DNA of 42,718 nt from a virus: positions 1 to 42,718 of the IMG/VR virus record IMGVR_UViG_3300046656_000396; one strand, written 5' to 3'. The notes beneath the pieces are model-generated. The model worked only from the letters and a program-made list of their open reading frames with translations, did not search any database and was not told the DNA's origin. The translations under genes and the position numbers were made by a program. Positions 1 to 42,718 of the stretch are shown here, in pieces (the first letter of the stretch is position 1; every line of letters starts with the position of its first letter).

Positions 1-186
1 ACCACGACCAACAACAGCAACACGTTCCGCGACCAGGGCATCCTGAACGCCGGCAACCAGTTGGTGAACGACACCAGCAACAGGTCCACGGGCGCCGTCG
101 ACAAGAACGTCGGAATCACGCAAACGCAGCTCGGCAACACCGGCTCGTCTGTCGGTCTGAACATCGGCACGAACGGCACGAACAAC
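1..186. repeat. Terminal direct repeat, left copy
   Basis: The first 186 bases are identical to bases 42533-42718. The shared stretch is coding and one reading frame passes through the join without a stop. This is what a circular assembly, or a circularly permuted and terminally redundant phage genome, looks like when written linearly. The unit genome is 42,532 bp. A real short packaged terminal repeat would give the same pattern and cannot be excluded from the sequence. Confidence 0.95.
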
Positions 187-6210: not shown

Positions 6211-8091
6211 ATGAGCCGCAGGTTCTCAGCGAACTTCGTCACGGCCACCACGAACTTGGTGGCCAGCGCGTTCACGTATTCGGCGTGGGTCTACCTCGAA
6301 TCCGGATCGAGTGACATTGACGTGCTCTCGGGTGAGGCGTCTGGGCCTCACTACAACGAGATTTACGTCAGCAACGGCAACGCCACATTCTCGCTGAATG
6401 ACGGCGCATCGAAATACACGCAAGCCATCTCGACGAACACGTGGACGCACCTAGCGCTCACGTTCGATTCGTCGAATCTGCGCTCGTACGTCAACGGCGC
6501 GCTTGTCGACACGCGCGCCTATACGACGGTCCTCGGGAACCTCACGACGTTTTACGTCGGCTACTTTGGAGCGACAGCGACGCTCCAAGACCTGATGACG
6601 TTCTCGGCCGTGCTGAGCGATGTAGAGATCGCGAATCTCTACCGCATGCGCGTGCCGCTCGTGCGCCGTGGAAACCTCCACTCATGGTGGCCACTGCACG
6701 CGGACTGCGGAACGATCGACTTCAGCGGGAACGCGCGCACGCTTTCCGGCGCAGGCGATAGCGCAGGCACCGTAGTTGCGCCGGCGCAGTGGGGCCCGCC
6801 GATCGCGATCCAGGCGCTGCGGGTCACCTCGAGCGCCACGAACATCGTCGGCACGGGTAGCTCGCAGACCACCGGCGCAGCGGTCGTTACGAGCTCGTCC
6901 GGCCTCGTAGCCACGGGCACGACGAACGTCACCGGGTCGGCGGTCATCACCTCGAGCGCGGCGCTTGTCGCGACCGGAACGACCAACGCGACCGGCGCAG
7001 CTGCGGCAACTGAGAGCGCTGCTCTGGTCGCGACTGGGTCGACGCAGACGACAGGCTCCGCGGTCTGGGGCACGGCCACCTTCCCCGTGATCGCCACTGG
7101 CGCCACGAATGTCACCGGCGCAGCTGCGGGCACTGAGTCTGCCGCCCTAGTCGCCACTGGCACCACGAACACAACCGGCGCGGCGAGCACCACAGAGAGC
7201 GCTGCGCTCGTGGCCAGCGGTGTGACCAACGTCACAGGCGCTGCGGCCGTCGACGCGACAGCCGGCCTCGTGGCGACAGGCGCCACGAACGTCACCGGCG
7301 TCGCTCTGTTCGACAGCGGGCTTTCGGCGTCTGGCAGCACCCAGGTAAGCGGCACTGCCGCCGTAACGTCCTCTGCTGCCCTCGTAGCGCTAGGCCAGGT
7401 CACCACGACCGGCAGCGCGGCCACGACCGGCAGCGCCGCTCTGGTGGCGTCAGGCTCGGTCACGACGTCGGGAACGGCCGCGCTCGACAGCTCGGCGAAC
7501 CTCACCGCGACCGGCAGCGTCCAGACCACCGGCACAGCCGCCGGCACAAGCGCGGCTGCGCTCGTAGCCACCGGCACAACGAACGTCACGGGCGCAGCCG
7601 TTGTCAGCTCGGGCGGCGCCACGAACATCGACGCCGCGGGCACGACGCAGACCACCGGCACGGCCAACACCGCGATCACGTACTCGCAAACGGCTGCGGG
7701 CAGCACGCAGAGCTCGGGAGCTGCAGCACTCAGCTCGAGCGCAGCACTCGTAGCGAGCGGCACGACGCAGACCACTGGTGCAGCGGTCATCAGCCTCGCG
7801 CAGACGTTCGCGATCGCTGGCAGCGGCACGACGAACACCACCGGCGCAGCGGTCGTCACGCTGGCGCAAGTGTTCCAGATCACAGCTGCAGGCCTCACGA
7901 GCTGCACTGGCGCTGCCGCGCTCAGCCTCGCGCAAGTGTTCCAGATCACAGCTGCGGGACTCACGGTCACATATGGCAGCGCGGCAGTCTCGGGCGGCAC
8001 CCCAGCGGGCGGCAGCGGCGACGGCGCGCAAACTGGCAGCCAGCGCCGTTGGGCTGAGGCGGGCGGCATGCGGCGCAGGCTGCGCCGATGA
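6211..8091 (+). CDS. LamG-like receptor-binding fibre protein A with 19-residue repeats
   Basis: 626 residues. Residues about 1-160 form a laminin-G/concanavalin-A-like jelly-roll: FTYSAWVYLES, WTHLALTFDSSNLRSYVNG, then a FSAVLSDVEIANLYRMR helix, the typical end of such domains. After a WWPL/DFSGN linker, residues about 205-600 hold 19 imperfect copies of a 19-residue unit (consensus SAALVATGTTNVTGAAVVT). The C-terminus is short and very basic after GDGAQTGSQRRW. LamG folds bind glycans, so this is probably a host-surface-binding tail protein. The next gene is a diverged tandem paralogue, overlapping by 4 bases (ATGA). Confidence 0.75.
   Translation: MSRRFSANFVTATTNLVASAFTYSAWVYLESGSSDIDVLSGEASGPHYNEIYVSNGNATFSLNDGASKYTQAISTNTWTHLALTFDSSNLRSYVNGALVDTRAYTTVLGNLTTFYVGYFGATATLQDLMTFSAVLSDVEIANLYRMRVPLVRRGNLHSWWPLHADCGTIDFSGNARTLSGAGDSAGTVVAPAQWGPPIAIQALRVTSSATNIVGTGSSQTTGAAVVTSSSGLVATGTTNVTGSAVITSSAALVATGTTNATGAAAATESAALVATGSTQTTGSAVWGTATFPVIATGATNVTGAAAGTESAALVATGTTNTTGAASTTESAALVASGVTNVTGAAAVDATAGLVATGATNVTGVALFDSGLSASGSTQVSGTAAVTSSAALVALGQVTTTGSAATTGSAALVASGSVTTSGTAALDSSANLTATGSVQTTGTAAGTSAAALVATGTTNVTGAAVVSSGGATNIDAAGTTQTTGTANTAITYSQTAAGSTQSSGAAALSSSAALVASGTTQTTGAAVISLAQTFAIAGSGTTNTTGAAVVTLAQVFQITAAGLTSCTGAAALSLAQVFQITAAGLTVTYGSAAVSGGTPAGGSGDGAQTGSQRRWAEAGGMRRRLRR
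6835..7990 (+). repeat. Tandem 57-bp coding repeats, about 19 copies (fibre A)
   Basis: The DNA repeats with a period of about 57 bp, encoding a 19-residue unit of Gly-Thr-Thr-Asn-Val-Thr-Gly-Ala-Ala type. Spacing varies by a few codons near the end, where a LAQ(V/T)F(Q/A)I spacer appears in the last copies; two of these are nearly identical over about 40 bp at 7867 and 7930. Copies are diverged at synonymous and non-synonymous sites, so the array is old and not a sequencing artefact. Confidence 0.85.
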
Positions 8092-10286
8092 GCGTCAACA
8101 ACAACTCCACTGCGGGCGTCGGCGGCCCGCAATTCCGCTTCAGCGGCACCGCGGCGGGCGCTCCCAACCTCCGGTCGGGCACGTACACGCTCGCCACGCG
8201 CGTCCGCTGGAACAGCTCGTCCACGACGGTCGACATGTTCGCGAGCGGGCTCGCGGTCAGCGGGGCAGACGCAAGCGGCGCGTACATCCAGCGCGTCAAC
8301 GGCGACCCGTCGACCACGATCAACTTCTACCGCACGAACACCGCGGGCTCGACGCTTCAGACCGCGACCTCGACCGGCGCATTCGGCAGCACCACGGCGT
8401 GGGTCCACCTCGCCATGACGTACGACGGCACGACCATCCGCTCGTACGTGAACGGTGTTGCGGGCGGCACGATCGCGAGCGGCACCACGACATGTACGAA
8501 CGCGGCGGCTGGCCTTCTGATCGGCTGCGGTCCGGGCGTGTCAGACACGGTCGACACGGTGTTCTTCGCGCGCGCGCTGTCGGCGGTTGAGATCGCTCAG
8601 CTCGCTGCGATGCGCATGCCGATCATTCGGCAAGGCGACTGCTTCGGATGGTATCCGATGTTCGGCGGCGCGAATCTCACCGAAGCCGGCATCGACTACA
8701 GCGGAAACGGCAACGCGCTGTCGGCGAGCGCAGCAGGCCCAAGCGTCACGAACGTGGCTCCGCCGACACCATGGGGCGGACCACAAGCGCTGCGCTTCCT
8801 GAGCCAGAGCTACGCAGTCACGACAGCGGGCACGACGAACAGCACGGGCGCGGCCGCGCTTACGAGCGCTGCGAGCTTGGCGGCGAGCGGCAGCACGCAG
8901 TGCACCGGCGCAGCCTCGATGACCTCGAGCTCGGCGATCGTGGCTACGGGCACGACGCAGACGACCGGCGCGGCCGTGATCGAAGACGGCTACTCGTGCT
9001 GGGATTCCAACGATCTCAGCCTGTCGCACACGATTTCCGCGTGGATATTTCCGACTGCTTCGCAGGAGAGCGCGCTTTTCAGGAGCGGCGCGATCGGGAT
9101 TTCGTCGGGCGCAGGCGGCATCAAGCTCAGCGGGACCACGCTCAACTTCTACGGGAACAACGGCGCCACCGGAGCAACGTACTCGTACTCGACCGCGGTC
9201 TCGCTGAACACGTGGACGTACGTTTCGCTGGTCTACGACGCGACCGCCAAGACGTACACGAGCTACATCAACGCAGCCTCGGTCGACTCTGCATCGTTCG
9301 ACGGCACGGGCCGATCAGCTAGCCAGGTTTGGCAGTTCTACGTGAACTTCGTGGGCGCCATGCGCTCGCTGCTCATTTCCTCGGGTTACGCGATGAGCGC
9401 TGCGCAGCTCTCGCAAACGATGCTGCTGAGGAGTGCTGGCGCGTACTTCGCCGGACTGGGTGACGAGCTCGGCATCTTTCTCCCGTTCTGGAGCTCGCTA
9501 AACTCGCGGTACATGTTCGGCTGCCCGACTCGGTTCGGGCTGAGCTTCGTCAACGTATTCGGTTCGGGGACGCTGGACTTCGTGGCTGCGGCTCCGCCGT
9601 CTGTCTGGGGCGGACCGAACACGCTCCAGTATCTCCGCGTTGGCTCGACGCTCGCGCTCGATGCCGCGGGCAGCTCACAAACGACTGGCGCGGCCACCGT
9701 TACCAGCTCCGCAGGCCTGACAGCCACGGGCGCGACCAACGTCACCGGCGCGGCCACTGTCACGCTCACCCAGGCGTTTCAGCTCGTGGCCACGGGCGCC
9801 ACAAACACCACGGGCGCAGCAGCGAGCAGCGAAAGCGCGTCACTCACGGCAGCTGGCAGCGTCCAGACGACCGGCACGGCGAGCGCGAGCTCAGCAGCCT
9901 CTCTGACGGCATCGGGCAGCACGCAGGCCACAGGCGCCGCCGCGGCCACATCCGCGGCGCAGCTCACGGCGGCTGGACTCACCCAGGTTTCCGGCCTCGC
10001 GCAGCCGTCCGGCGCGCTCGTCACGTCCGGCCTGACGAACGTCACCGGTTCGGCAGTGGTGACGCTCACGCAGACGTTCAGCATCACCGCGTCCGGCGTG
10101 AGCAACTGCTCTGGCGCAGCGGCAATCACCATCACCTACACGCTCGTAGCTGCCGGAACCACCCAGGTGACAGGTGTGGCAGCGCTGTCGATCCCGACGC
10201 CCGGAGGCGGCGGCGATGGACAGCAAACAGGCTCGGAACGTCGATGGCTAGGATCGACAGGAGCGAGGCGCAGAACGAGGCGCTGA
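8088..10286 (+). CDS. LamG-like receptor-binding fibre protein B, two LamG-type domains plus repeats
   Basis: 732 residues. Paralogue of the upstream fibre. The first jelly-roll covers residues about 25-180 (WVHLAMTYDGTTIRSYVNG, FFARALSAVEIAQLAAMR). A YSGNGN linker and three 19-residue repeats (about 245-300) follow. A second LamG-like domain covers about 300-450 (ISAWIFPT, WTYVSLVYDATAKTYTSYIN). After a linker come about nine more repeats (about 520-700). It ends GDGQQTGSERRW plus a basic tail, matching the C-terminus of protein A. Probable tail-tip adhesin; the glycan-binding role is inferred from the fold. Confidence 0.75.
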   Translation: MSVNNNSTAGVGGPQFRFSGTAAGAPNLRSGTYTLATRVRWNSSSTTVDMFASGLAVSGADASGAYIQRVNGDPSTTINFYRTNTAGSTLQTATSTGAFGSTTAWVHLAMTYDGTTIRSYVNGVAGGTIASGTTTCTNAAAGLLIGCGPGVSDTVDTVFFARALSAVEIAQLAAMRMPIIRQGDCFGWYPMFGGANLTEAGIDYSGNGNALSASAAGPSVTNVAPPTPWGGPQALRFLSQSYAVTTAGTTNSTGAAALTSAASLAASGSTQCTGAASMTSSSAIVATGTTQTTGAAVIEDGYSCWDSNDLSLSHTISAWIFPTASQESALFRSGAIGISSGAGGIKLSGTTLNFYGNNGATGATYSYSTAVSLNTWTYVSLVYDATAKTYTSYINAASVDSASFDGTGRSASQVWQFYVNFVGAMRSLLISSGYAMSAAQLSQTMLLRSAGAYFAGLGDELGIFLPFWSSLNSRYMFGCPTRFGLSFVNVFGSGTLDFVAAAPPSVWGGPNTLQYLRVGSTLALDAAGSSQTTGAATVTSSAGLTATGATNVTGAATVTLTQAFQLVATGATNTTGAAASSESASLTAAGSVQTTGTASASSAASLTASGSTQATGAAAATSAAQLTAAGLTQVSGLAQPSGALVTSGLTNVTGSAVVTLTQTFSITASGVSNCSGAAAITITYTLVAAGTTQVTGVAALSIPTPGGGGDGQQTGSERRWLGSTGARRRTRR
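9652..10191 (+). repeat. Tandem 57-bp coding repeats, about 9 copies (fibre B)
   Basis: Same 19-residue unit as in the upstream fibre (G-S-S-Q-T-T-G-A-A-T, G-A-T-N-V-T-G-A-A-T and so on). A separate block of three units sits at 8821-8988, ahead of the second LamG-like domain. The arrays in the two genes share the unit and LTQ(A/T)F spacers, pointing to duplication of a whole fibre gene followed by domain insertion or loss. Confidence 0.8.
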
Positions 10287-11577: not shown

Positions 11578-11886
11578 TCATTTCGTGGGCGAGCTCGGCT
11601 CCGCGTGTGCCGCATCAGCCTTCACAGCCTCGGCAGCTGACGCACTGCTGACGCAGAAGCTTTGAACCTTGCGTGCGTGATCATCCAGTCCGGCCACGAA
11701 TCCGCGCCAAAACTTCGGCAACTCATCCTGCCCGTGCGTCTCGGGGTCGCCCGGTCCAATCCAGCCAATCAGCTCCTTCACCAACGGCTCGCGCTCGCGG
11801 AAGCGCTTCAGTTCATCGCGCATCGCCTCGATCTCGTCTCTGAAGCACTGAAAACAGCTCGCTATGAATCCGTGTGGACAGGTCAC
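11578..11886 (-). CDS. Small CxHx5CxxC protein downstream of integrase, 102 aa
   Basis: GTG at 11886 overlaps the integrase stop (GTGA) and has GAGGG about five bases upstream. Frames further upstream are shadows of the integrase. Residues 3-14 contain C-PH-x5-C-x2-C, probably zinc-binding, followed by a coiled coil (RDEIEAMRDELKRFREREPL). A middle segment has Trp/Gly (ELIGWIGPGD). Function unknown; its coupling to int suggests a regulatory accessory, but that is inference. Confidence 0.6.
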   Translation of the reverse strand: MTCPHGFIASCFQCFRDEIEAMRDELKRFREREPLVKELIGWIGPGDPETHGQDELPKFWRGFVAGLDDHARKVQSFCVSSASAAEAVKADAAHAEPSSPTK

Positions 11887-12917
11887 GCTTCCCTCGCAAT
11901 CGGTTTTGGCTGTGTCAGTCGCGGCAGCTTGCTCGCGGCTTGCTGCAAGTGATCGCCGCGCTTTCCAACCTGCGCGTAGACCTGCTCGAGCATCGCCACG
12001 CTGTTGCCCATGATTTTCGCCAGCGTGAGTATCGGCACGCCAGCGCGCGCCATGTGCGTCGCGTACGTTCCCCGCAGGTCGTTCACGCTGACAGCTTCGC
12101 CGATCGCGCGCAGCGACGTGCGCCGCAACACGAAGTCGGCACATCGCTTCTCCCAGTGCGGAATCACGTCAGCGCATCCACGCCGCGGAAGCATGTGCTC
12201 GTAGAGCTCATCTGGTATCGGCACGTCGCGCACGGAGCCGCGCGTCTTGGTTCCAGCCACGTGCACGTAGCGCGCGCTCCAGTCGACCTCTGTGATCTTC
12301 GCTGGCTCGCTCAGGCGTAACCCGAGCTGCAGGTAGGCCATGATGTTGAGGCGCCTCTCGGGCGGCGTGGCGAGCAGCAATGACCGTTGCTCGTCCAGCT
12401 CGAGCACGCGCTGAGGCTTGTGCTCGATGGCTCCGAGCTCGGGGAACTCGGGAGGCTTCACGCCAGCGATCGCGAAGGCCTGCAGCAGCGTTTGAAACTC
12501 GCGCTGCACCGTCCACGGGCCTCGGCCCTGCCCGCGCGACCAGACTGCGTAGGCGCGCAGTCTGTCAGCGTCGAGCGTCGAGAGTGGGGTGCGCTCGTCG
12601 AGACCTTCCACGAGCCGCTGACCCCTGTACATGATGTTGTCGAGCGTGGGCCGCGAGCGCCCCGCTAGCTCCGCGGCTTCGGTGAGCGCGGCGAGCGCTT
12701 GCTTGAGCGTTTTGCTTGGGCGCGTGAGAGCTTCTCCTCCAAGCGCTGCATCGCGCTCGATTTGGTCTGCGATGATTTGCGCTCTCTCTCGGGATTTGCT
12801 TGTTCCATCGTTTCGGATGCCGGTTGATTTCGCGATCCGTCGCCGGGTGCCTCGTGCGTAGTACCAGCAGTAGGCTTGCCACTTGTCGGAGCCTGGGCGT
12901 TCAAAGAGATCGGCCAT
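11883..12917 (-). CDS. int: Tyrosine-recombinase integrase, 344 aa
   Basis: Phage-size tyrosine recombinase that would integrate and excise the prophage. The N-terminal domain is of the Trp-Arg-rich arm-binding kind (WQAYCWYYARGTRRRIAKSTG); the core-binding domain covers about 70-165. The catalytic domain shows R201 (RLSE), K224 (TKTRGS), R282 in NDLRGTYATHM, H288 and the nucleophile Y314 (LEQVYAQV). Two positions usually His are Asn here: N279 in the HxxR motif and N305 in the LGH-like motif. ATG at 12917 has GGGGA ten bases upstream. It overlaps an excisionase-like gene by 253 bases in another frame. Confidence 0.88.
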   Translation of the reverse strand: MADLFERPGSDKWQAYCWYYARGTRRRIAKSTGIRNDGTSKSRERAQIIADQIERDAALGGEALTRPSKTLKQALAALTEAAELAGRSRPTLDNIMYRGQRLVEGLDERTPLSTLDADRLRAYAVWSRGQGRGPWTVQREFQTLLQAFAIAGVKPPEFPELGAIEHKPQRVLELDEQRSLLLATPPERRLNIMAYLQLGLRLSEPAKITEVDWSARYVHVAGTKTRGSVRDVPIPDELYEHMLPRRGCADVIPHWEKRCADFVLRRTSLRAIGEAVSVNDLRGTYATHMARAGVPILTLAKIMGNSVAMLEQVYAQVGKRGDHLQQAASKLPRLTQPKPIAREA

Positions 12918-15238: not shown

Positions 15239-15603
15239 GCCGGCACCCCGTTCTCATCGCGCGCAGCCTCGACTTTGGGCGCGCGCGGGCGGCCGGCGTC
15301 GCTGCGAGTCGCGCGGGGCTTGATGCCGTCGAGCGCCATGCGCGCGGCCTTGGCCTCGCGCTCGTGCGTATCGACGCGCTTCTTGAGCTCGGTCTCGATC
15401 TGGTAGCGCAGCGCTACGAGCGCCGTGGTGGGCATGATCTCCACAGCGATCTGCACCTCTTGCTTCTGTACCGGCGTCAACTTGTCAGGGTCCATCATGT
15501 CACTCTCCTCGCCGCCGTCAGCGGCATTGAACTCTTCGTACGCATAGGGGTCTTCACAGCGCATGCTCCAGCTGTCGTAGTCGTCGAAGCCGGTCATGCT
15601 CAC
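15235..15603 (-). CDS. Hypothetical acidic protein before the Sak4-like gene, 122 aa
   Basis: GTG at 15603 overlaps the previous stop (GTGA) and its stop overlaps the next GTG. The N-terminal 45 residues are acidic (DDYDSW, DGGEESDMMDPD). A helical region follows (TPVQKQEVQIAVEIMPTTALVALRYQIETELKKR), then a basic Pro/Arg tail. Coupling to the ATPase suggests a recombination accessory; no SSB or exonuclease fold is recognised. Confidence 0.6.
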   Translation of the reverse strand: MSMTGFDDYDSWSMRCEDPYAYEEFNAADGGEESDMMDPDKLTPVQKQEVQIAVEIMPTTALVALRYQIETELKKRVDTHEREAKAARMALDGIKPRATRSDAGRPRAPKVEAARDENGVPA

Positions 15604-15773
15604 TCCGCAGCCGCTGGCTGCGCCTCCCGTGCAAGCTCGTCTTGCAGCTGTGCGAGCTGCCGGCGCTGCCCGCGCAGCTGTTGCAGGTTGCGGCGCACGT
15701 GCTCGAGGAGGAAACGTTCCCGCTCCTCGGCTCGCTCGATCTCCTGTGCCAGTAGCTGTTGCATGTTGATCAC
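15600..15773 (-). CDS. Small coiled-coil protein, 57 aa
   Basis: The GTG at 15773 is chosen as start because the GAACCGGGAGA leader ends six bases upstream (15779-15789 on the minus strand). The longer frame to 15902 would translate a structured RNA element. The product is nearly all coiled coil (EIERAEERERFLLEHVRRNLQ, Q/R-rich) with an Ala/Pro end. Function unknown. Confidence 0.55.
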   Translation of the reverse strand: MINMQQLLAQEIERAEERERFLLEHVRRNLQQLRGQRRQLAQLQDELAREAQPAAAE

Positions 15774-15795
15774 TGGTGTCTCCCGGTTCGTGGTT

Positions 15796-15888
15796 GGTTG
15801 CGTGACTCGAAGCTGCCGCCGCCGCATGCGATCCCTCTGGGCCCTGCGGGAGTCGAACCCGCGCTCATGCGGAGGCAGCTTCCAATCA
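15796..15888 (-). ncRNA. Structured stem-loop element, copy 1 (leftward early transcript)
   Basis: On the minus strand this 93-base segment starts at the stop codon of the upstream gene with TGATTGGAAGCTGC and ends GCAGCTTCGAGTCACGCAAC. GAAGCTGC pairs with GCAGCTTC and the stem continues with CCGCATG/CATGCGG. The interior contains a tRNA T-arm-like hairpin. The ends match copy 2 at 22712-22800 (14/14 and 18/20 bases), including bases outside the stem, while the interiors differ. Both copies lie in the sense strand of an early operon. Could be an antitermination, processing or attachment element; role unknown. Confidence 0.55.
15838..15862 (-). other. tRNA 3'-end-like fragment (T-arm plus acceptor strand), attP candidate
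   Basis: On the minus strand GCGGG-TTCGACT-CCCGC is a perfect T-arm (5-bp stem, 7-base TTCGA-type loop) followed by AGGGCCC and A, as in the 3' end of a tRNA. No matching 5' acceptor strand (GGGCCCT) lies within the 80 bases upstream, so it is not a whole gene. Phages that integrate in tRNA genes carry just such a 3' fragment as attP. Against this, int is 3 kb away. Confidence 0.45.
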
Positions 15889-16200
15889 GCAGCACTCATC
15901 AAACGCGCGTTCGAAGTACGTCCACGCCAGCCGTGCAGCGCCGGTCAGCGCGACCTCGCCCGCGTGCTCATCGATCGGGCAGCGCCAGCCGTGGCGCGTC
16001 TTCTGCTCGTACGCGCGCGCCCAGCAGCAGAACGCCGTCCACGCGTCGAGCAGGCACTCGCGCTCGCGCTGCGACAGCCAGACCTGCTCGGCGTGCTCGT
16101 AGCCAGCGCCCTCGCACGCCGCATCACGCAGCGCGCGCTTCAGGCCTTCGAAGGGGAACACGTAGGGTGCTGCGACCGGGGTGATTGCGTTGCCGTCCAT
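15886..16200 (-). CDS. First gene of the leftward operon, Trp/Cys-containing protein, 104 aa
   Basis: ATG at 16200 is taken as start because the frame upstream of it runs through three operator sites. There is no Shine-Dalgarno, and the nearest promoter-like pair (TTGACT at 16236, ACAAAT at 16214) would put the RNA start within a few bases of the ATG. The product (FEGLKRALRDAACEGAGYEHAEQ, CCWARAYEQKTRHGWRCPIDEHAGEVAL) resembles small phage proteins of unknown function. In lambda this place is taken by N; no Arg-rich antiterminator motif is obvious here. Confidence 0.65.
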   Translation of the reverse strand: MDGNAITPVAAPYVFPFEGLKRALRDAACEGAGYEHAEQVWLSQRERECLLDAWTAFCCWARAYEQKTRHGWRCPIDEHAGEVALTGAARLAWTYFERAFDECC

Positions 16201-16203
16201 GAG

Positions 16204-16259
16204 TTGACATTTGTCAGGTCTCTGGACCGGAGTCAACGGTGAAAGTTGACAATCGTCAA
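16204..16259. promoter_or_regulatory. Left operator cluster (three repressor/Cro-type sites)
   Basis: Three 14-bp sites fit TTGACA-NN-TGTCAA: 16204-16217 TTGACATTTGTCAG, 16223-16236 TGGACCGGAGTCAA (weaker, 9 of 12) and 16246-16259 TTGACAATCGTCAA. They sit between the leftward operon start (16200) and the rightward lipoprotein gene (16321), so they can control both. The same motif recurs three times between the repressor and cro-like genes. Confidence 0.75.
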
Positions 16260-16320
16260 GATTGGACAAAAAAGACGCACCGCGCGTAGACTCCGCGTGC
16301 GTACGGGAAGGGCTTACACT

Positions 16321-16902
16321 GTGAAGAACACACGCTTATTCGTGATTGCGGCCATGCTTGGCGGTTGTAGCGGCGCCCCGGTTGGCCTGGACGGGCCACG
16401 GGGCCCAGCAGGGCCGATGGGTGAGCGTGGGGCGCCTGGACCGGCTGGCAGCAGCTACAGGCCGGTCTTCTGGGTGAGCTGCGACGCCAAGCTCGATATC
16501 ATCCGGGCCGGCGCTTCAGGCCCTGAGCGTGCTCCTGATGGCATGGCTGAGACCGGGCTCGAGTACACCGTGGTCGTCTACAGCAACGCCGACCTCGAGG
16601 TGCAGTGCGGGGCGAACATCGGTTCGGCGCAGTCAGGCGCTTCGAGCGAGTACTACCCAGCGATCACGAAGGGCGCGTCCACCGGCGTTTGCCTTGTAAA
16701 CGCGGACTTTCCTCCCGGACCGGTGGTCGGGTACTGGTCGTTTGCGATCGAAGCCGCGCTGCCCCATGCGGCCTACGTCGATCCTGACAACCCCCTCGGA
16801 CTCAACGGATACAGCTACTCATTCAGCGAAACGGACTGCCACGCAGACATGCTCGGAGACAACGCCAAGTGGACTCAGGTCACCTTGGCGGACGTTTTCT
16901 AG
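16321..16902 (+). CDS. Collagen-like lipoprotein beside the left operators, 193 aa
   Basis: GTG at 16321 has GAAGGG eight bases upstream. The N-terminus is a lipoprotein signal (MKNTRLFVIAAMLGGC) with cleavage before C16. Residues 22-42 are seven Gly-X-Y triplets (GLD-GPR-GPA-GPM-GER-GAP-GPA). A 145-residue beta-rich domain follows with three further cysteines (VSCDAKLD, VQCGANIG, GVCLVNAD), ending FSETDCHADML. It would be an envelope-anchored surface protein. Between operators and repressor gene it fits a lysogenic-conversion or superinfection-exclusion gene, by position only. A TGGACA-N18-TAGACT promoter (16263-16292) is weak. Overlaps the repressor gene tail to tail by 23 bases. Confidence 0.75.
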   Translation: MKNTRLFVIAAMLGGCSGAPVGLDGPRGPAGPMGERGAPGPAGSSYRPVFWVSCDAKLDIIRAGASGPERAPDGMAETGLEYTVVVYSNADLEVQCGANIGSAQSGASSEYYPAITKGASTGVCLVNADFPPGPVVGYWSFAIEAALPHAAYVDPDNPLGLNGYSYSFSETDCHADMLGDNAKWTQVTLADVF

Positions 16903-17374
16903 GCCCGCCGTTCTGCGCCGCCTGGGCGAGCTCGTGCTTGAGCCGGTTGATCTCGTGATCCTTCATCGCGAGCATGGCCTGCATCTCGAGCCGGAACTGC
17001 GAGAGCTCGTGCAGCTGCTCGTCAACACTCGCCTGCCACTTCTTTTGGCGCTGTTCGTCGAGCGAGTAGACCTTGAGCAAGTCCGCCTCATCGGCGACGT
17101 TTTTGAGCTGTGGGTCGAAGAAGAAGTCCGGCGAAATGTTGAGCCCGATTCTCACCTGGCGGACTATGTCTGCTGAAAGCCCCGTACGGCCAGTCCTTTC
17201 CGGGTTGCAGAGCTTACTTAGGTGAGTCTCGTCAATACCTGTACGGCGCGAAATCTCCGCGCGGTTGATCCCGGCATGCTGCCGCATGAGGCGGACTAGC
17301 AGCTGGAAGCGGCGGAGCTCGACGCTGATTCCCTCGACATCGACCGACTCAGGTTGGCCGCGGCTTTTTGGCAT
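16880..17374 (-). CDS. Lysogeny repressor-type HTH protein without S24 domain, 164 aa
   Basis: ATG at 17374 is used; the frame extends upstream only through operator DNA. Residues about 18-80 carry an XRE-type HTH (INRAEISRRTGIDETHLSKLCNPERTGRTGLSADIVRQV). Residues about 105-154 are a coiled coil (QKKWQASVDEQLHELSQFRLEMQAMLAMKDHEINRLKHEL). There is no LexA/CI-type serine-lysine peptidase domain, so RecA-driven self-cleavage is not expected. It diverges from the cro-like gene across three operators. GACAAT at 17386-17381 would give a transcript starting at the ATG, as for lambda cI from PRM. Confidence 0.75.
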   Translation of the reverse strand: MPKSRGQPESVDVEGISVELRRFQLLVRLMRQHAGINRAEISRRTGIDETHLSKLCNPERTGRTGLSADIVRQVRIGLNISPDFFFDPQLKNVADEADLLKVYSLDEQRQKKWQASVDEQLHELSQFRLEMQAMLAMKDHEINRLKHELAQAAQNGGPRKRPPR

Positions 17375-17398
17375 GCCCTCATTGTCCACGGTTGGGGG

Positions 17399-17448
17399 GT
17401 GACACGTGTCCCCCAGTTCTTGACGATTGGCATCTTGACAGTTGTCAA
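17399..17448. promoter_or_regulatory. Right operator cluster (three sites)
   Basis: Sites: 17399-17412 GTGACACGTGTCCC, 17420-17433 TTGACGATTGGCAT and 17435-17448 TTGACAGTTGTCAA, all versions of TTGACA-NN-TGTCAA. Site starts are 21 and 15 bp apart. They lie between the divergent repressor (start 17374) and cro-like gene (start 17470), the arrangement of lambda OR1-OR3. The strongest site overlaps the -35 box of the rightward promoter. Confidence 0.8.
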
Positions 17449-17463
17449 CTTTCGCCGTATCGA
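17435..17463 (+). promoter_or_regulatory. Rightward early promoter (PR-like)
   Basis: TTGACA (17435-17440), a 17-base spacer, then TATCGA (17458-17463). The -35 box is the left half of the strongest operator, so bound repressor would block it. The predicted start of transcription, about seven bases after the -10, is at or next to the cro-like ATG at 17470, implying a leaderless message. Confidence 0.55.
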
Positions 17464-17469
17464 TGGGGA

Positions 17470-17670
17470 ATGGAGCACCCTGGAAAGCGACTGCGGCGAA
17501 CGCGTGAGAAGCGGCAGCTGACTCAGCTGGATCTTGCCCAGCTGGTGAAGTGTCATGACTCATATATCTCCCAAATCGAGGCAGGTAAGCGCGGCCCTGG
17601 TCTACGCCTAGCCCTGGCCTTCGAAAAACTGCTCGGCATCAAGGCTGCAGATTGGGTCGCAGCGGCATGA
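17470..17670 (+). CDS. Cro-like XRE-family HTH protein, 66 aa
   Basis: ATG at 17470 begins MEHPGKRLRRTREKRQLTQLDLAQL. The HTH covers residues about 17-40 (LTQLDLAQLVKCHDSYISQIEAG), the classic XRE form, followed by the LALAFEKLLGI helix. Size, single domain and position as first rightward gene opposite the repressor match a Cro-type regulator. No good Shine-Dalgarno sits at a normal distance. It presumably binds the six TTGACA-NN-TGTCAA sites; this is inferred from layout. Confidence 0.8.
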   Translation: MEHPGKRLRRTREKRQLTQLDLAQLVKCHDSYISQIEAGKRGPGLRLALAFEKLLGIKAADWVAAA

Positions 17671-17685
17671 CCTGCAAGAGCCATT

Positions 17686-17715
17686 CGGTAACGCAGATAA
17701 CAACCTGCGTTACCG
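17686..17715. terminator. Perfect 11-bp hairpin after the cro-like gene
   Basis: CGGTAACGCAG and CTGCGTTACCG form a perfect 11-bp stem around an 8-base ATAACAAC loop, 15 bases after the cro-like stop. There is no T-tract. It may be an early attenuator or factor-dependent terminator like lambda tR1, or a protein site. A second palindromic patch (GCGATGC-ATA-CGCATGCGC) follows at once. Confidence 0.5.
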
Positions 17716-17858
17716 CGATGCATACGCATGCGCACTGCGCAACTGGCGTTCAGCGCACTCTGGATCGAGCACGTGATTCCTCCCCCGCCCTGAACCGGGG
17801 TTTGGAGCGTGTTCGCTCGAGCGTGTGCGGCGTTCATGGACCGCGCGCGCTCGCGGCT

Positions 17859-17911
17859 CGCCGCCGTCGCTGACAAGGCTTGTCCCCCCTTGCCTGCAGC
17901 TGACGGCGGCG
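17859..17911. promoter_or_regulatory. Strong 14-bp leader hairpin before the 17948 gene
   Basis: CGCCGCCGTC-GCTG pairs with CAGC-(T bulge)-GACGGCGGCG across a 24-base interior that has its own AGGC/GCCT pairing. It ends 36 bases before the next start codon. Between this and the hairpin at 17686 the 277-base gap after the cro-like gene has no gene. A leader with two strong structures suggests control of read-through into the replication genes. Confidence 0.5.
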
Positions 17912-17947
17912 CAGTCGCCCTAAACACCGAACGGATCGGAGGTAGAC

Positions 17948-18304
17948 GTGTCGACGAATACGAGACCTGACGAAGAGCGATCTCTGTACTGCAAGCTGGA
18001 CGAGGAAGCCCTGCTTTTGAAGGGCGTGCGCGTCACCGAGCGCGTGGACCAACTCAAGGCCTTCCATCTGCAAAAGGAGGACCTTGCCACGCAGATCAAA
18101 GCCGTCGCGGCCAAGGAGAAGGCCACTTCCTTGGCGCTCGAGATGTTGTCCGATGAGATCAAGCACAAGCGCGAGCTGCAGCCGGTTACGTGCCGCTGGG
18201 AGCGCGGGCAAGACCAGTGGGTCTGCCATCGCGTCGATACGGGCGAAGTGGTCGACACATCCCCGATCACCATGGCGGACAAGCAGGAGCGCCTGTTCTC
18301 ATGA
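17948..18304 (+). CDS. Hypothetical coiled-coil early protein, 118 aa
   Basis: GTG at 17948 has GGAGG five bases upstream. Residues about 15-75 form a helical/coiled region (RVTERVDQLKAFHLQKEDLATQIKAVAAKEK). The end is VTCRWERGQDQWVCHRVDTGEVVDTSPIT, a C-x-W...W-x-C hairpin followed by a TGEVV strand that I have seen in many small phage early proteins of unknown role. Stop overlaps the initiator start (ATGA). Confidence 0.7.
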   Translation: MSTNTRPDEERSLYCKLDEEALLLKGVRVTERVDQLKAFHLQKEDLATQIKAVAAKEKATSLALEMLSDEIKHKRELQPVTCRWERGQDQWVCHRVDTGEVVDTSPITMADKQERLFS

Positions 18305-19305
18305 GCTCCAAAAACAGGACAGCCGCACCCCCCTTCCACAGATGGCGCGGCCTACCGAAAGAACTACCTCAGTCACTCTACCACGTCTCGCACTATGCGC
18401 GAGCGACGGCACAAGACCTTTACCGCATCGCCGATAGCTACGACGGCAAGATCGAGACGCGCGGCGACCGCTGGGACGTGTCGCTCTGCTGCTCGATGCA
18501 GGTTCCCGGCCCCGACCGCCGCAACGCCTGCAGGGCACTCGGGCAGCTGAAAGAGTCCGGGGCTATTCGGGTGTTCGATGGCTTCGTCGTGGTGTGCTTG
18601 GGGCAATCTTTGGACGGACTCCCCGCGCACACAAAAGCTGATTCACTCGGACTCCACTCGGATTCACTCGGATTCACTCCGGACTCCACTCGGATTCCAC
18701 TCGGATTCGACACTGAGTCAAGTAATTGTAATCAGGCGATTTCTGAACCACAGAACAGAACAGAACAAAGAAGAGAACAGAGTGAGAGTGAGACGCGCAC
18801 ACGCACGCGATCCTCTGACTTCGAAAAACCGCCAGTCGGACTAGCGCCGCCCGAGCTTCCGACCGCATCGCTTCCGACCGCCCGCGTTTGGTTGCTCTAC
18901 ACGCAGGAGATCAACCGGGAGGGAATGCTCGGAACAGGAAGCCAGTTCTATGGCACCCTGCTGGCCGTCAGTGACGCGATCACTATCGAGGTGGGGGCAT
19001 CGGAGGGGGAGGCCTTCGATCGGGCAACACAGAGGCTCCTGCGAGCTTGGCTGAGCGACAAGTTCGTCAAGGAAAAGAACCCGACACTAGCCAACCTAGG
19101 TAAGAATCTACATCGATACACTCGGGCAAAAGCCAAGCCGATTGTGAAACTAGTTGGGGACGTCCAAAAGGCGACCGACTGTCACTCAGACGAGGACCTT
19201 TTGGCGTGGCCAGCGTGGCGCGAGGGTGAGCTCGACATCTGGCAGAAGCAACGGCGCTGGGAGCTGCAGGCGCGCGCTGAGCGAGCGGCTGGGGGTGCGT
19301 CATGA
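18301..19305 (+). CDS. Lambda-O-like replication initiator with internal origin, 334 aa
   Basis: ATG at 18301 overlaps the previous stop. The N-terminal region (about 10-105) has a winged-helix look (LPQSLYHVSHYARATAQDLYRIADSYDGK, RRNACRALGQLKESGAIRVFDGFVVV). Residues about 112-140 (SLGLHSDSLGF, STRIPLGF) are encoded by an iteron array. A Ser/Arg/Glu-rich linker follows, then a C-terminal domain (about 195-330) with many charged and Trp residues. Initiator, iterons inside the gene and an adjacent purine/AT-richer tract are the plan of the lambda O gene. It probably binds the iterons and recruits host replication factors, as no phage helicase or polymerase is encoded. Confidence 0.7.
   Translation: MSSKNRTAAPPFHRWRGLPKELPQSLYHVSHYARATAQDLYRIADSYDGKIETRGDRWDVSLCCSMQVPGPDRRNACRALGQLKESGAIRVFDGFVVVCLGQSLDGLPAHTKADSLGLHSDSLGFTPDSTRIPLGFDTESSNCNQAISEPQNRTEQRREQSESETRTRTRSSDFEKPPVGLAPPELPTASLPTARVWLLYTQEINREGMLGTGSQFYGTLLAVSDAITIEVGASEGEAFDRATQRLLRAWLSDKFVKEKNPTLANLGKNLHRYTRAKAKPIVKLVGDVQKATDCHSDEDLLAWPAWREGELDIWQKQRRWELQARAERAAGGAS
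18640..18713 (+). repeat. Iteron array, probable phage origin of replication
   Basis: Seven head-to-tail units of 10-11 bp: GATTCACTCG, GACTCCACTCG, GATTCACTCG, GATTCACTCCG, GACTCCACTCG, GATTCCACTCG and a partial GATTCGACAC. Starts fall at 18640, 18650, 18661, 18671, 18682, 18693 and 18704, close to one DNA turn each. They lie inside the initiator gene, as lambda iterons do in O. A looser GGACTCC half-unit occurs at 18615. Confidence 0.8.
18714..18790 (+). other. AT/purine-richer tract next to the iterons (unwinding-element candidate)
   Basis: Immediately after the iterons the sequence becomes AT-richer (AAGTAATTGTAATCAGGCG) and then strongly purine-biased with ACAGA-type repeats (ACAGAACAGAACAAAGAAG) to about 18790. 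This is unlike the GC-rich surroundings and mirrors the AT-rich stretch beside lambda iterons. It still encodes part of the initiator linker. Confidence 0.6.
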
Positions 19306-22800: not shown

Positions 22801-22811
22801 ACGCGACTCAT

Positions 22812-22884
22812 TGGCCACTGGCTCAACTGGTAGAGCACCGGATTCCAAATCCGGAGGTTGCAGGTTCGAGACCTGCGTGGTCAG
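22812..22884 (+). tRNA. tRNA-Trp (anticodon CCA)
   Basis: Full cloverleaf. The acceptor TGGCCAC pairs with GTGGTCA (one G-U), the D-arm is GCTC/GAGC with a GG-containing loop, and the anticodon stem CCGGA/TCCGG has loop TTCCAAA, so the anticodon is CCA. The T-arm is GCAGG/CCTGC with loop TTCGAGA. The discriminator is G, as in bacterial tRNA-Trp. CCA is not encoded at the 3' end. The coordinates end at the discriminator base. Confidence 0.9.
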
Positions 22885-22886
22885 CC

Positions 22887-22970
22887 CAGGGTGTAGCTCA
22901 CGTGGGAGAGCGCGGGTTGGCCATCTAAAAAGATGCCCGAGAGCTGGGTTCGACTCCCAGCCCCTGACCA
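22887..22970 (+). tRNA. Atypical tRNA-like gene with expanded anticodon loop (possible pseudo-tRNA)
   Basis: Two bases after tRNA-Trp. D-arm GCTC-ACGTGGGA-GAGC and T-arm CTGGG-TTCGACT-CCCAG are normal, and the 3' end is encoded as ACCA. The anticodon stem can be CGGGT/GCCCG, leaving a 17-base loop instead of 7. Within it CATCT-AAAA-AGATG can form a further stem. The acceptor stem is weak (CAGGG/CCCTG only). Length 84. It does not read as any canonical isoacceptor. Either a decayed tRNA or a decoy/modified one. Confidence 0.6.
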
Positions 22971-24944: not shown

Positions 24945-25154
24945 GTGACGCCAGAAGAGGTGAAGCGCGCGGTCGCGTCGGTGGAGCTCAACGGGCTCGG
25001 GCCTGGGGCGACTGTCATCGGCTGTGCGTCCAACCTGCTCGCGATCGCTGTCGACGTCGGCGCCGACCAAGAGCTCATCGTGGCTCTGCACCAGCACGGA
25101 GACGCGTTGGTGCGCGTGAACGGATACGTGGTCGAGGTGGTTGATGACCTCTGA
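24945..25154 (+). CDS. First gene of the virion operon, hypothetical, 69 aa
   Basis: GTG at 24945 falls at the predicted RNA start of the TTGACA promoter at 24910, with no Shine-Dalgarno. Small globular protein (TPEEVKRAVASVELNGLGPGATVIG, LIVALHQHGDALVRVNGYVVEVVDD). No membrane segment or Cys pair. Could be a late regulator by position; nothing proves it. Confidence 0.55.
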   Translation: MTPEEVKRAVASVELNGLGPGATVIGCASNLLAIAVDVGADQELIVALHQHGDALVRVNGYVVEVVDDL

Positions 25155-25326
25155 CGAGCTCGACGACTGGTTCGTGACGGCCATCTTCGTCGTGTGCTGG
25201 GTCGTGCTGATCGCCAGCTCGGGCTGCGGCTGCCAGCTCAAGACGAAGTGGTCGCAGTACCAGCACGGGCCGGTGCTCGTGGGGACGAAGCCAGACCCAA
25301 AGACTGCAGCGGATGGCGATGACTGA
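25144..25326 (+). CDS. Small membrane-anchored protein, 60 aa
   Basis: ATG at 25144 overlaps the upstream gene. One hydrophobic segment (FVTAIFVVCWVVLIASSGCGC) followed by a polar tail (KTKWSQYQHGPVLVGTKPDPK). SSGC could act as a weak lipobox. Small envelope protein; a spanin-like subunit is possible but unproven. Confidence 0.5.
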   Translation: MTSDELDDWFVTAIFVVCWVVLIASSGCGCQLKTKWSQYQHGPVLVGTKPDPKTAADGDD

Positions 25327-25519
25327 ACGCCTGGAGCTATTGATTGAGTTCGCATCGGAGCTGCTGCACCGCGCGCTGTGCGGCGTGCTCGGCCATCGGT
25401 ACTCAACGATCCGCTCGTACTTCGACGACAGCGCTGGCGACCGTTACGAGCTGACCAGCAAAACGTATTGCCTGCGTTGTTTGCGTGACAAAGACGATAT
25501 CGAGGACATCTGCGCATGA
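25313..25519 (+). CDS. Small Cys-pair protein, 68 aa
   Basis: ATG at 25313 lies in the end of the preceding gene. N-terminal helix (ERLELLIEFASELLHRALCGVLGHR), then an aromatic middle and a C-terminal YCLRCLRD pair. With the earlier Cys-Gly-x3-Gly-His this could form one zinc site. Function unknown. Stop overlaps the next ATG. Confidence 0.55.
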   Translation: MAMTERLELLIEFASELLHRALCGVLGHRYSTIRSYFDDSAGDRYELTSKTYCLRCLRDKDDIEDICA

Positions 25520-25821
25520 AAGCTCACGTCAAAGCCAAGCTCACCAAGACCACGCTTTGGTTCGCGCTCACCATGGGCGCCGTCTGGGCGTGCGCCCTGT
25601 CGATGGGCGGCTGCGCCATGGTGCCTGCCGACAAGGTCATCGAGGCGGCCAGTAAGTGCATCGCTGACGCCACCAACATCCTCGCATCGCAGGCCGAGTT
25701 GCTCGAGACGCGCAAGGCTGCTGCCGACCTGCAGAGCACGCTGGCCGAGGCGGCGAAGGTCTGCCCGTGCCCGAGGCCACTCGAGCCCAACCCGTACACG
25801 CCCGATGGTGGCGCGCAGTGA
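25516..25821 (+). CDS. Lipoprotein, o-spanin-like candidate, 101 aa
   Basis: ATG at 25516 overlaps the previous stop. Basic N-terminus (MKAHVKAKLTKTT), hydrophobic signal (WFALTMGAVWACALSM) and lipobox M-G-G-C, then a helical periplasmic part (VIEAASKCIADATNILASQAELLETRKAAADLQ) and a Pro-rich end. Outer-membrane lipoprotein of small size; an outer spanin is a reasonable guess, but no inner partner is adjacent. Confidence 0.55.
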   Translation: MKAHVKAKLTKTTLWFALTMGAVWACALSMGGCAMVPADKVIEAASKCIADATNILASQAELLETRKAAADLQSTLAEAAKVCPCPRPLEPNPYTPDGGAQ

Positions 25822-40622: not shown

Positions 40623-42718
40623 TGGCGACCGGGCCCGTACTGAAAAAGAAGCAGCTCGGCGCGGTTCAGGAGCGCGTACCGCCCGTGGGCTCAGCGAGTC
40701 CCGGCACGATCATCCAGCCAGGTCCGTACACGACTGGTTCGGCTGGTGTTGGCGTGGTGCCTAACCCCGTGACGACTACGCCATCTTCGGCTGTAGGGTC
40801 GAGCCAGTATTCTCAATACGCGCAGGCAGGAACGCCGAACGGTGTTCCGCAGTCTTTCACCGATGGCATCGCAAGCTTGATCGCGGGCGACACGGGCGCG
40901 AACAACCGCAATGCGCACGGCAATCGCACGTTCAGCTACAACGGCCAGGCGTACACCGTTCCAGAGAACGGCTACAGCCAAGACGAGTTCAATGACATCG
41001 TCAATCGCGCCTGGAACTCGACGACGCCTGCACAAAAGCAGGAGTACATCCAGACAGATGCCAAGGCGACTGCGGGCATCAACCAGACGAACCTGACCAA
41101 TGCAGCCTCGCAAGCCGCGCTGCAGGCGCCACAGAACAACGCCAAGGTTGCAAGCAACTACTGGACGAATACGGTTCAGCCGGCGCAGCAGAGGGCAGAC
41201 ACCGCCGCCGCGTCGCAGATCACGGGCGACAGACAGGCCGAAGGCGAGATCGCTGGCAACGCGAAGGCCTACGGCGACACGCTCGACCAGAATCAGGGCC
41301 TGCGGATGGCGGGCATCCAGGCGACCAACGCCTACGACACCGGGCAAGCGCAGCGCTACGAAGACGCGACCAACCAGGCGAACAGCCAGCTGTCCGGCTA
41401 CGGCCAGCAGTACACCAACATCGCCAACCAGGCGAATACGCAGCAGACCGGCTACTTCAACGACTACCGCAATCAGCTGCAGGACATCAACGCGAACCAG
41501 TCTGCGCTTACCTCGCAGAATGCTTCGACGCTGAATGGCATCAGCGCGAATCAGACCGGCCTATACAACAACTTCATGGGCGATGTTGCGTCGTCCAACG
41601 CGCAGCAGAATCAGAACCTGAGTCAGTTTGGCGGAGCCGTAAGCAGCGCCAACAGCACGGCGAACCAGAACCTCGCTGGCTTCGGAACGACCGTAGCGAA
41701 CGCGAACAGCCAACAGAACGCGGTGCTCGGGCAGTATCTAAACGAGCTCTCGCAGATGAACAGCGAGGATCGTGGCGCGTTCCTGAAGTACCTCGGCGAG
41801 ACTGACCCGCTGATGGCGCAGAAGGTCGCGCAGGCGTCGAACCCGCAGTACGTCGCGAATCAAGAAGACGCGGTCCAGCAGTTCAAGAACAACTACAACC
41901 CTGAGACCACGGACCAAGAGCGGTTCCTTGCTGAGCTTGCGCGTCGCAAGTTCGAGAGCGATGACCAGGGCAGCCGCCAGGCTCTCATGCAACAGCTTGC
42001 GGGGCGCGGGCTGAAGTCTGGTGGGCTCGTAATCGCTGGCCAGCAGCAGGCGCAGCAGCAGATCGCGCAGGACAGGCAGGCGAGTGAGCTCGGACTCAAC
42101 GCGAATGCCGTGGCGCGAGCCGAACGCAACCGCGTCGACTTCTCGAACGCGTCGACAGCGCTGCGAAATGCTGACGACGCGATGAAGCAGTTTTCTGACA
42201 CGTACGCCCAGAACGAAGCGGTACGCGTCGGCAATCTCGCGCAGCAGCGCAACCAGCAGAGCCTGAACACGACCGGTCAGATCACCGCGCGCGACACCGC
42301 TGGTTACAACGCCGGCACCCAGACCGTCCGCGACAACTACGGCCGCGACGCCGACTATTACAACGCGAGCCAGACGGTCAACAACCAGAACTACGGCCGT
42401 AATCTCGACTACTACAACGCCGGCACGCAGACGGTGAATGACAACTTTGCGCGCGACCAAGCCGGATTCAACGCAGGCACGGTGACAAACGAGGACAACA
42501 CCGGCCGCGCAAACGACATCTTCAACAACGGCACCACGACCAACAACAGCAACACGTTCCGCGACCAGGGCATCCTGAACGCCGGCAACCAGTTGGTGAA
42601 CGACACCAGCAACAGGTCCACGGGCGCCGTCGACAAGAACGTCGGAATCACGCAAACGCAGCTCGGCAACACCGGCTCGTCTGTCGGTCTGAACATCGGC
42701 ACGAACGGCACGAACAAC
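40622..42718 (+). CDS. Q/N-rich virion protein, N-terminal part (continues at base 1)
   Basis: ATG at 40622 overlaps the previous stop. The frame is open to the end of the window and on the circle continues to 450 (786 residues in total). N-terminus Gly/Pro/Thr-rich, then Gln/Asn/Ala-rich helical stretches. Residues about 405-520 are more regular (LKYLGETDPLMAQKVAQAS, ERFLAELARRKFESDDQGSRQALMQQLAGRGLKSGG). Residues about 560-670 hold six copies of an 18-residue unit of NAGTQTVNDNYGRDxDYY type. Very low hydrophobicity. Likely internal or ejected virion protein. Confidence 0.8.
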   Translation, partial: MATGPVLKKKQLGAVQERVPPVGSASPGTIIQPGPYTTGSAGVGVVPNPVTTTPSSAVGSSQYSQYAQAGTPNGVPQSFTDGIASLIAGDTGANNRNAHGNRTFSYNGQAYTVPENGYSQDEFNDIVNRAWNSTTPAQKQEYIQTDAKATAGINQTNLTNAASQAALQAPQNNAKVASNYWTNTVQPAQQRADTAAASQITGDRQAEGEIAGNAKAYGDTLDQNQGLRMAGIQATNAYDTGQAQRYEDATNQANSQLSGYGQQYTNIANQANTQQTGYFNDYRNQLQDINANQSALTSQNASTLNGISANQTGLYNNFMGDVASSNAQQNQNLSQFGGAVSSANSTANQNLAGFGTTVANANSQQNAVLGQYLNELSQMNSEDRGAFLKYLGETDPLMAQKVAQASNPQYVANQEDAVQQFKNNYNPETTDQERFLAELARRKFESDDQGSRQALMQQLAGRGLKSGGLVIAGQQQAQQQIAQDRQASELGLNANAVARAERNRVDFSNASTALRNADDAMKQFSDTYAQNEAVRVGNLAQQRNQQSLNTTGQITARDTAGYNAGTQTVRDNYGRDADYYNASQTVNNQNYGRNLDYYNAGTQTVNDNFARDQAGFNAGTVTNEDNTGRANDIFNNGTTTNNSNTFRDQGILNAGNQLVNDTSNRSTGAVDKNVGITQTQLGNTGSSVGLNIGTNGTNN
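42533..42718. repeat. Terminal direct repeat, right copy
   Basis: Exact copy of bases 1-186 (see left copy). The duplicated stretch lies inside the Q/N-rich virion gene. In annotation only one copy should be counted. Confidence 0.95.

What the first reader, a model, noticed from the sequence alone, without database searches (positions are those of the whole stretch)
16321..16902. Collagen-like lipoprotein gene inserted between the left operators and the repressor
A lipobox (MLGGC), seven Gly-X-Y triplets and a Cys-containing beta domain define a surface lipoprotein. It lies where accessory lysogeny genes (for example lambda rex or superinfection-exclusion lipoproteins) sit, and its promoter region overlaps operator DNA. 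It could alter the lysogen surface or block re-infection. A collagen-like lipoprotein under direct phage-operator control is unusual.
Basis: partly seen in the sequence, partly recalled or inferred. Interest (0 to 1): 0.62.

Follow-up and report, generated by a model that had tools for sequence, protein, structure and literature searches.

The report
Phage lipoprotein with short collagen stalk
A temperate phage, probably of a myxobacterium-like host, carries in its genetic-switch region a small lipid-anchored, probably surface protein with a short collagen-like stalk; a sister phage keeps the same gene, promoter and repressor sites in the same arrangement, so it is real and probably changes the surface of the infected cell, possibly to keep out other phages.

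Summary
Window 16321-16902 (+, GTG start, RBS GGGAAGGG) encodes a 193-aa protein with a lipobox (LGGC, Cys16), eight G-X-Y triplets counting the final GSS, and a 150-aa domain with four cysteines. It lies between a left operator array (16204, 16223, 16246) and a convergent repressor gene (16880-17374, -), with a right array (17399, 17420, 17435) and a Cro-like gene beyond. I found one sister phage in IMG/VR (42.1 kb; capsid 91% identical). It has the lipoprotein in the same place (65% identical, all four Cys and the lipobox kept), with identical operator spacing (19/23 left, 21/15 right) and a promoter, TSGACA-18-TASACT, starting 17 bp after the start of the innermost left operator in both. 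dN/dS is about 0.38. The domain has no other detectable relative in phages, plasmids, IMG/VR or the sampled Myxococcota genomes, and AlphaFold could not fold it. Best reading: a lysogeny-region lipoprotein (moron) with its own operator-adjacent promoter that displays a domain on the lysogen's envelope, most likely for superinfection exclusion. Gene, anchor and conserved layout are supported; surface function, expression state and trimerisation are inferred. A new variant of a known kind, not a new system.

The parts
16321..16902 (+). Lipoprotein gene, GTG start, 193 aa, stop TAG
   Evidence: ORF; homologue at same place in sister phage, 65% identity; purifying selection
16321..16368 (+). Signal peptide and lipobox, MKNTRLFVIAAMLGG|C
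   Evidence: Sequence; Cys16 and MLxxC kept in the sister phage
16384..16455 (+). Collagen-like stretch, 8 G-X-Y triplets (9 in the sister phage)
   Evidence: weak Pfam Collagen match
16450..16899 (+). C-terminal domain, acidic (pI about 4.1), four conserved Cys (54, 96, 124, 173); no known relatives outside the two phages
   Evidence: negative searches
16305..16312 (+). Probable ribosome-binding site GGGAAGGG
   Evidence: Sequence
16263..16292 (+). Lipoprotein promoter, TGGACA-18-TAGACT
   Evidence: Only sigma-70-like site in 15600-18400; the same geometry is the only site in the sister region
16204..16217 (.). Left operator, outer (TTGACATTTGTCAG)
16223..16236 (.). Left operator, middle (TGGACCGGAGTCAA)
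   Evidence: the sister site at this position is degenerate (3 mismatches)
16246..16259 (.). Left operator, next to the lipoprotein promoter (TTGACAATCGTCAA)
17399..17412 (.). Right operator-like site (GTGACACGTGTCCC, core GACNNNNGTC)
   Evidence: a site with core GACAGGTGTC lies at the same spacing in the sister phage (read by eye)
17420..17433 (.). Right operator-like site (TTGACGATTGGCAT)
   Evidence: spacing of 15 kept in the sister phage
17435..17448 (.). Right operator (TTGACAGTTGTCAA)
16880..17374 (-). Repressor gene in the cI position: weak HTH domain and charged C-terminal part, no peptidase domain found
   Evidence: 59% identical in the sister phage
17470..17670 (+). Cro-like HTH gene
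   Evidence: 52-54% identical in the sister phage
15886..16200 (-). First leftward gene (MDGNAIT...), starting at the outer left operator
   Evidence: its start is conserved in the sister phage

Best explanation
This is an accessory gene of a temperate phage's lysogeny region (a moron). Its promoter points away from the leftward early operon and sits just outside the left operators, so repressor bound there need not block it; the gene would then be transcribed in the lysogen (inferred). The product is exported, lipidated at Cys16 and, having Ser (Val in the sister) at +2, goes to the outer membrane by default (inferred from the known sorting rule). The short collagen-like stretch acts as a spacer, possibly a trimerising stalk, that holds an acidic four-cysteine domain off the membrane. 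There it most likely interferes with a receptor or an incoming phage, giving superinfection exclusion as Ltp, Cor and Lpp021 do, by a domain of its own. Shown: gene, anchor signal, conserved position, operator array and promoter geometry. Inferred: expression in the lysogen, surface display, exclusion.
For: Sister phage keeps gene, lipobox, four Cys and G-X-Y run. Operator spacing is identical in both phages. The same promoter is at the same distance. dN/dS about 0.38 against 0.32 for the repressor and 0.15 for the capsid. The lipoprotein (61-65%) is better kept than the other early genes (about 31-55%), so it is not drifting cargo. It lies about 11 kb from the structural genes. Lipoproteins in lysogeny modules with exclusion activity are documented: Ltp of TP-J34 is transcribed in the prophage, lipid-anchored and has a spacer plus active domain (PMC3952083); Lpp021 and Lpp010 of mEp phages exclude phages (PMC11893012).
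Against: No homology to any known exclusion protein or defence model. No RNA or infection data. The operator lies about 46 bp upstream of the inferred transcription start, not the spacing of about 42 at lambda PRM (general knowledge), so the sign of regulation is unknown. The n-region of the sister signal peptide lacks Lys/Arg. Eight triplets without hydroxyproline are few for a stable triple helix.
Confidence: 0.45

Rival explanations
1. Lysogenic conversion for the host's benefit: the lipoprotein changes adhesion, cell-cell contact or another surface property of the lysogen and does not exclude phages.
For: Same anatomy and position. Collagen-like proteins are very common in the likely host phylum: 316 of 379 genomes match at E<=0.01 and 268 exceed the Pfam cut-off, against 3 of 14 controls, and some of those inspected are lipoproteins, so the stalk fits the habit of the group.
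Against: No host homologue of the domain in the sampled genomes, so no known host function is being copied. The host phylum is itself uncertain.
Confidence: 0.25
2. An early infection gene: repressor bound at the left operators represses the lipoprotein promoter, and the protein is made just after infection to shut out competing phages.
For: The -35 is 3 bp from the inner operator, so a bound repressor could contact or crowd RNA polymerase.
Against: The promoter core lies outside every operator, unlike the presumed leftward promoter. The gene is transcribed toward the repressor gene, not with the leftward early genes.
Confidence: 0.15
3. A virion part such as a tail-fibre or tail accessory protein with a collagen-like shaft.
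For: G-X-Y matches to PHROG tail-fibre families and to tail proteins; prophage collagen-like proteins of E. coli are probably tail fibres (PMC3368898).
Against: All those matches are centred on the repeat (about residues 17-58, with two weak extensions to residues 99-106). The gene has a lipobox, lies in the immunity region, and the phage has separate tail genes with lectin-like domains at 6211-10286.
Confidence: 0.06
4. The gene also acts through its RNA: reading through its stop it runs antisense into the repressor gene, so promoter activity tunes repressor level and lysogeny.
For: Convergent genes overlapping by 23 bp in this phage and also overlapping in the sister; no terminator-like site on the + strand in the region.
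Against: The protein itself is under purifying selection, so an RNA role would be additional. Terminator scans miss many real terminators.
Confidence: 0.09

Closest known systems
Ltp of Streptococcus thermophilus phage TP-J34 (superinfection-exclusion lipoprotein)
   Same: Lipoprotein gene in the lysogeny module; anchor, spacer and C-terminal functional domain (PMC3952083)
   Different: Gram-positive host, Ser-rich spacer and repeat domain; no sequence relation found; regulation differs
Cor of phi80/N15 and Lpp021/Lpp010 of mEpimmI coliphages
   Same: Phage-encoded proteins of Gram-negative lysogens that block phage entry at the envelope (PMC11436027, PMC11893012); the Lpp proteins are lipoproteins
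   Different: No sequence relation found; the mEpimmI genes lie within the structural gene cluster; no collagen stretch described
lambda rexAB and BstA of BTP1 (accessory genes next to cI)
   Same: Accessory genes in the immunity region beside the repressor gene
   Different: Those are transcribed with cI from its promoter (PMC7067206 for bstA; rex from general knowledge); this gene is convergent with the repressor and has its own promoter by the left operators
EPclP prophage collagen-like proteins of E. coli O157:H7
   Same: Phage-encoded G-X-Y protein
   Different: Tail-fibre domains, long collagen part, no lipoprotein mentioned in that paper (PMC3368898)

Membership tests
Bacterial lipoprotein (Lgt/LspA substrate) | N-terminal signal peptide ending in a lipobox Cys | tested here: met
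   MKNTRLFVIAAMLGGC; MNNALLFAVAAMLAAC in the sister phage. Lipidation itself is not testable here.
Pfam Collagen PF01391 | Score above the curated cut-off of 27.2 bits | tested here: not met
   14.9 bits; 17.0 in the sister. Collagen-like by pattern only.
Ltp-type host cell surface-exposed lipoproteins | Sequence homology to the Ltp family domain | tested here: not met
   No Ltp-type Pfam, PHROG or NCBIfam model matched; only repeat or collagen matches
Superinfection-exclusion lipoproteins (functional class) | Expression blocks infection by other phages | not testable with these tools
   Needs infection assays
Superinfection-exclusion lipoproteins (functional class) | Expressed from the repressed prophage | not testable with these tools
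   Needs RNA-seq; promoter geometry permits it
Phage collagen-like tail fibres | Tail-fibre domains and location among structural genes | tested here: not met
   Only the repeat matches; location 16.3 kb, structural genes about 27.7-42.7 and 0-10 kb
cI-operon accessory genes (rex, bstA) | Same strand as the repressor and co-transcribed with it | tested here: not met
   Opposite strand, convergent, own promoter

The most novel reading that the evidence does not exclude
A lysogeny-region lipoprotein whose promoter is set by the left operator array and whose transcript runs antisense into the repressor gene, so that one element couples the cell-surface state of the lysogen to the lysis-lysogeny switch, using a collagen-stalked domain of an undescribed family.
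Probability: 0.12. Interest if true: 0.6.

Novelty: new variant of a known kind. Interest (0 to 1): 0.38.

Why it matters
Exclusion and conversion lipoproteins are hard to recognise because they share no sequence. Here position, operator geometry and conservation in a sister phage mark a candidate with a domain that matches nothing known and a collagen-like spacer, in a phage lineage whose closest cultured relative found is a Silvanigrella phage. It shows that comparing immunity regions can find such genes, and it gives a small, testable pair of proteins.

Tried and rejected
Single-protein scans of IMG/VR, phages, plasmids and genome contigs found no relative; the sister phage came in through the terminase and capsid proteins. 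Two-sequence profile scans of IMG/VR and of 379 and 184 genomes gave the sister phage and otherwise chance-level matches; those inspected were biased or antisense-like frames. A degenerate DNA pattern for DNPLGLNG found only unrelated frames besides the sister. AlphaFold with one and two sequences gave models too poor for a fold search, so none was run. Thirteen IMG/VR loci with a related AAA protein have no collagen-like lipoprotein. A portal search of the phylum failed on the server. The virion-protein reading was rejected because only the repeat matches. The idea that the gene sits in the repressor operon was rejected on strand.

Full report
What is there. The window is a virus record from IMG/VR with a 186-base direct terminal repeat, so it is probably a complete genome of about 42.5 kb. 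It is a temperate phage: integrase at 11883-12917, a repressor/Cro pair, portal (PHROG head and packaging), capsid and other head genes. At 16321-16902 on the + strand a GTG-started gene with a good ribosome-binding site encodes 193 residues: a lipoprotein signal peptide ending in LGGC, eight G-X-Y triplets, then 150 residues with four cysteines. The G-X-Y run is not chance (0 of 100,000 shuffles), although it is too short to pass Pfam's Collagen cut-off.

The regulatory setting. A palindrome TTGACNNNNGTCAA with at most one mismatch occurs only four times in the window, all here: 16204, 16223, 16246 and 17435 (0.75 expected). Weaker sites at 17399 and 17420 complete a right array. The layout is: leftward gene, left array, lipoprotein gene (+), repressor gene (-, convergent, 23-bp overlap of the ends), right array, Cro-like gene (+). 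This is lambda-like in plan. That these are operators of this repressor is an inference from number, symmetry, place and conservation; binding was not tested.

The sister phage. Terminase and capsid searches found one relative, IMGVR_UViG_3300048939_000020, 42,104 bases, with capsid 91% and terminase 76% identical. It carries the lipoprotein at the same place (65% identity), with the lipobox, all four domain cysteines and nine triplets. Its operator spacing is the same, 19 and 23 bases on the left and 15 on the right; the outer right site is recognisable by the core GACNNNNGTC at the same spacing of 21 (read by eye from the sequence). The only sigma-70-like promoter found in either region is the lipoprotein promoter, with an 18-base spacer and the -35 starting 17 bases after the start of the inner left operator in both phages (0.2-0.4 expected per region). 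Nei-Gojobori dN/dS is about 0.38 for the lipoprotein, 0.32 for the repressor, 0.33 for the Cro-like gene and 0.15 for the capsid. The lipoprotein is kept better than most early genes. So the gene is real, under selection, and part of a conserved immunity-region layout.

What the domain is. Unknown. Pfam, PHROGs, NCBIfam, PADLOC and PDB sequences give matches to the collagen part only or none. Phage and plasmid collections, IMG/VR and the genome scans gave no relative except the sister. The genome searches sampled only part of the phylum, and a two-sequence profile is weak, so distant host relatives may exist. AlphaFold gave mean pLDDT 30 and 38, so 'beta domain' stays a guess.

Host. Not settled. 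An AAA-protein relative lies in a Myxococcales MAG. A distant prophage of the same capsid/portal/terminase order sits in a 10.8-Mb chromosome of the same phylum. The nearest cultured phage found infects Silvanigrella. In the sampled phylum collagen-like genes are almost universal (316 of 379 genomes), and several of those inspected are lipoproteins, so a collagen-stalked lipoprotein fits such a host.

How it most likely works. Position outside the virion block, conserved own promoter just outside the operators, lipid anchor, spacer and a small acidic domain resemble Ltp of TP-J34, which is transcribed in the prophage, lipid-anchored with a spacer, and blocks DNA injection (PMC3952083), and the exclusion lipoproteins of mEp coliphages (PMC11893012). 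I therefore favour an envelope-displayed exclusion protein made in the lysogen, at 0.45, with host-benefit surface conversion next at 0.25. It works like those proteins but is not a member of their families by sequence.

Novelty. A new variant of a known kind: a lysogeny-region lipoprotein with an undescribed domain, a collagen-like spacer and a promoter tied to the left operators facing the repressor gene. It would become more interesting if the promoter proves to be switched by the repressor, or if its transcript tunes the repressor.

Noticed in passing
window 1-186 and 42533-42718: 186-base direct terminal repeat: the record looks like a complete genome of about 42.5 kb.
   Followed up: yes
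window 25144-25326 and 25516-25821: Two further small ORFs with lipobox-like motifs (SSGC, MGGC) near the late genes; possibly outer-membrane spanin-like or other small lipoproteins. No Pfam match.
   Followed up: no
window 6211-10286: Two adjacent large genes each with a Laminin_G_3 (concanavalin-like lectin) domain, probable receptor-binding tail proteins; the sister phage appears to have one gene matching both.
   Followed up: partly
window 17370-17390 and L156 4200-4225: The repressor start is preceded by GACAAT six bases before the ATG in both phages, which would fit a leaderless transcript as for lambda cI.
   Followed up: no
L153 3115-3330: The sister phage has a low-complexity (GYGSGYGYGDG) glycine-tyrosine repeat ORF just left of its first leftward genes.
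   Followed up: no
window 22811-22888: A single tRNA-Trp gene (anticodon CCA) in the phage.
   Followed up: no
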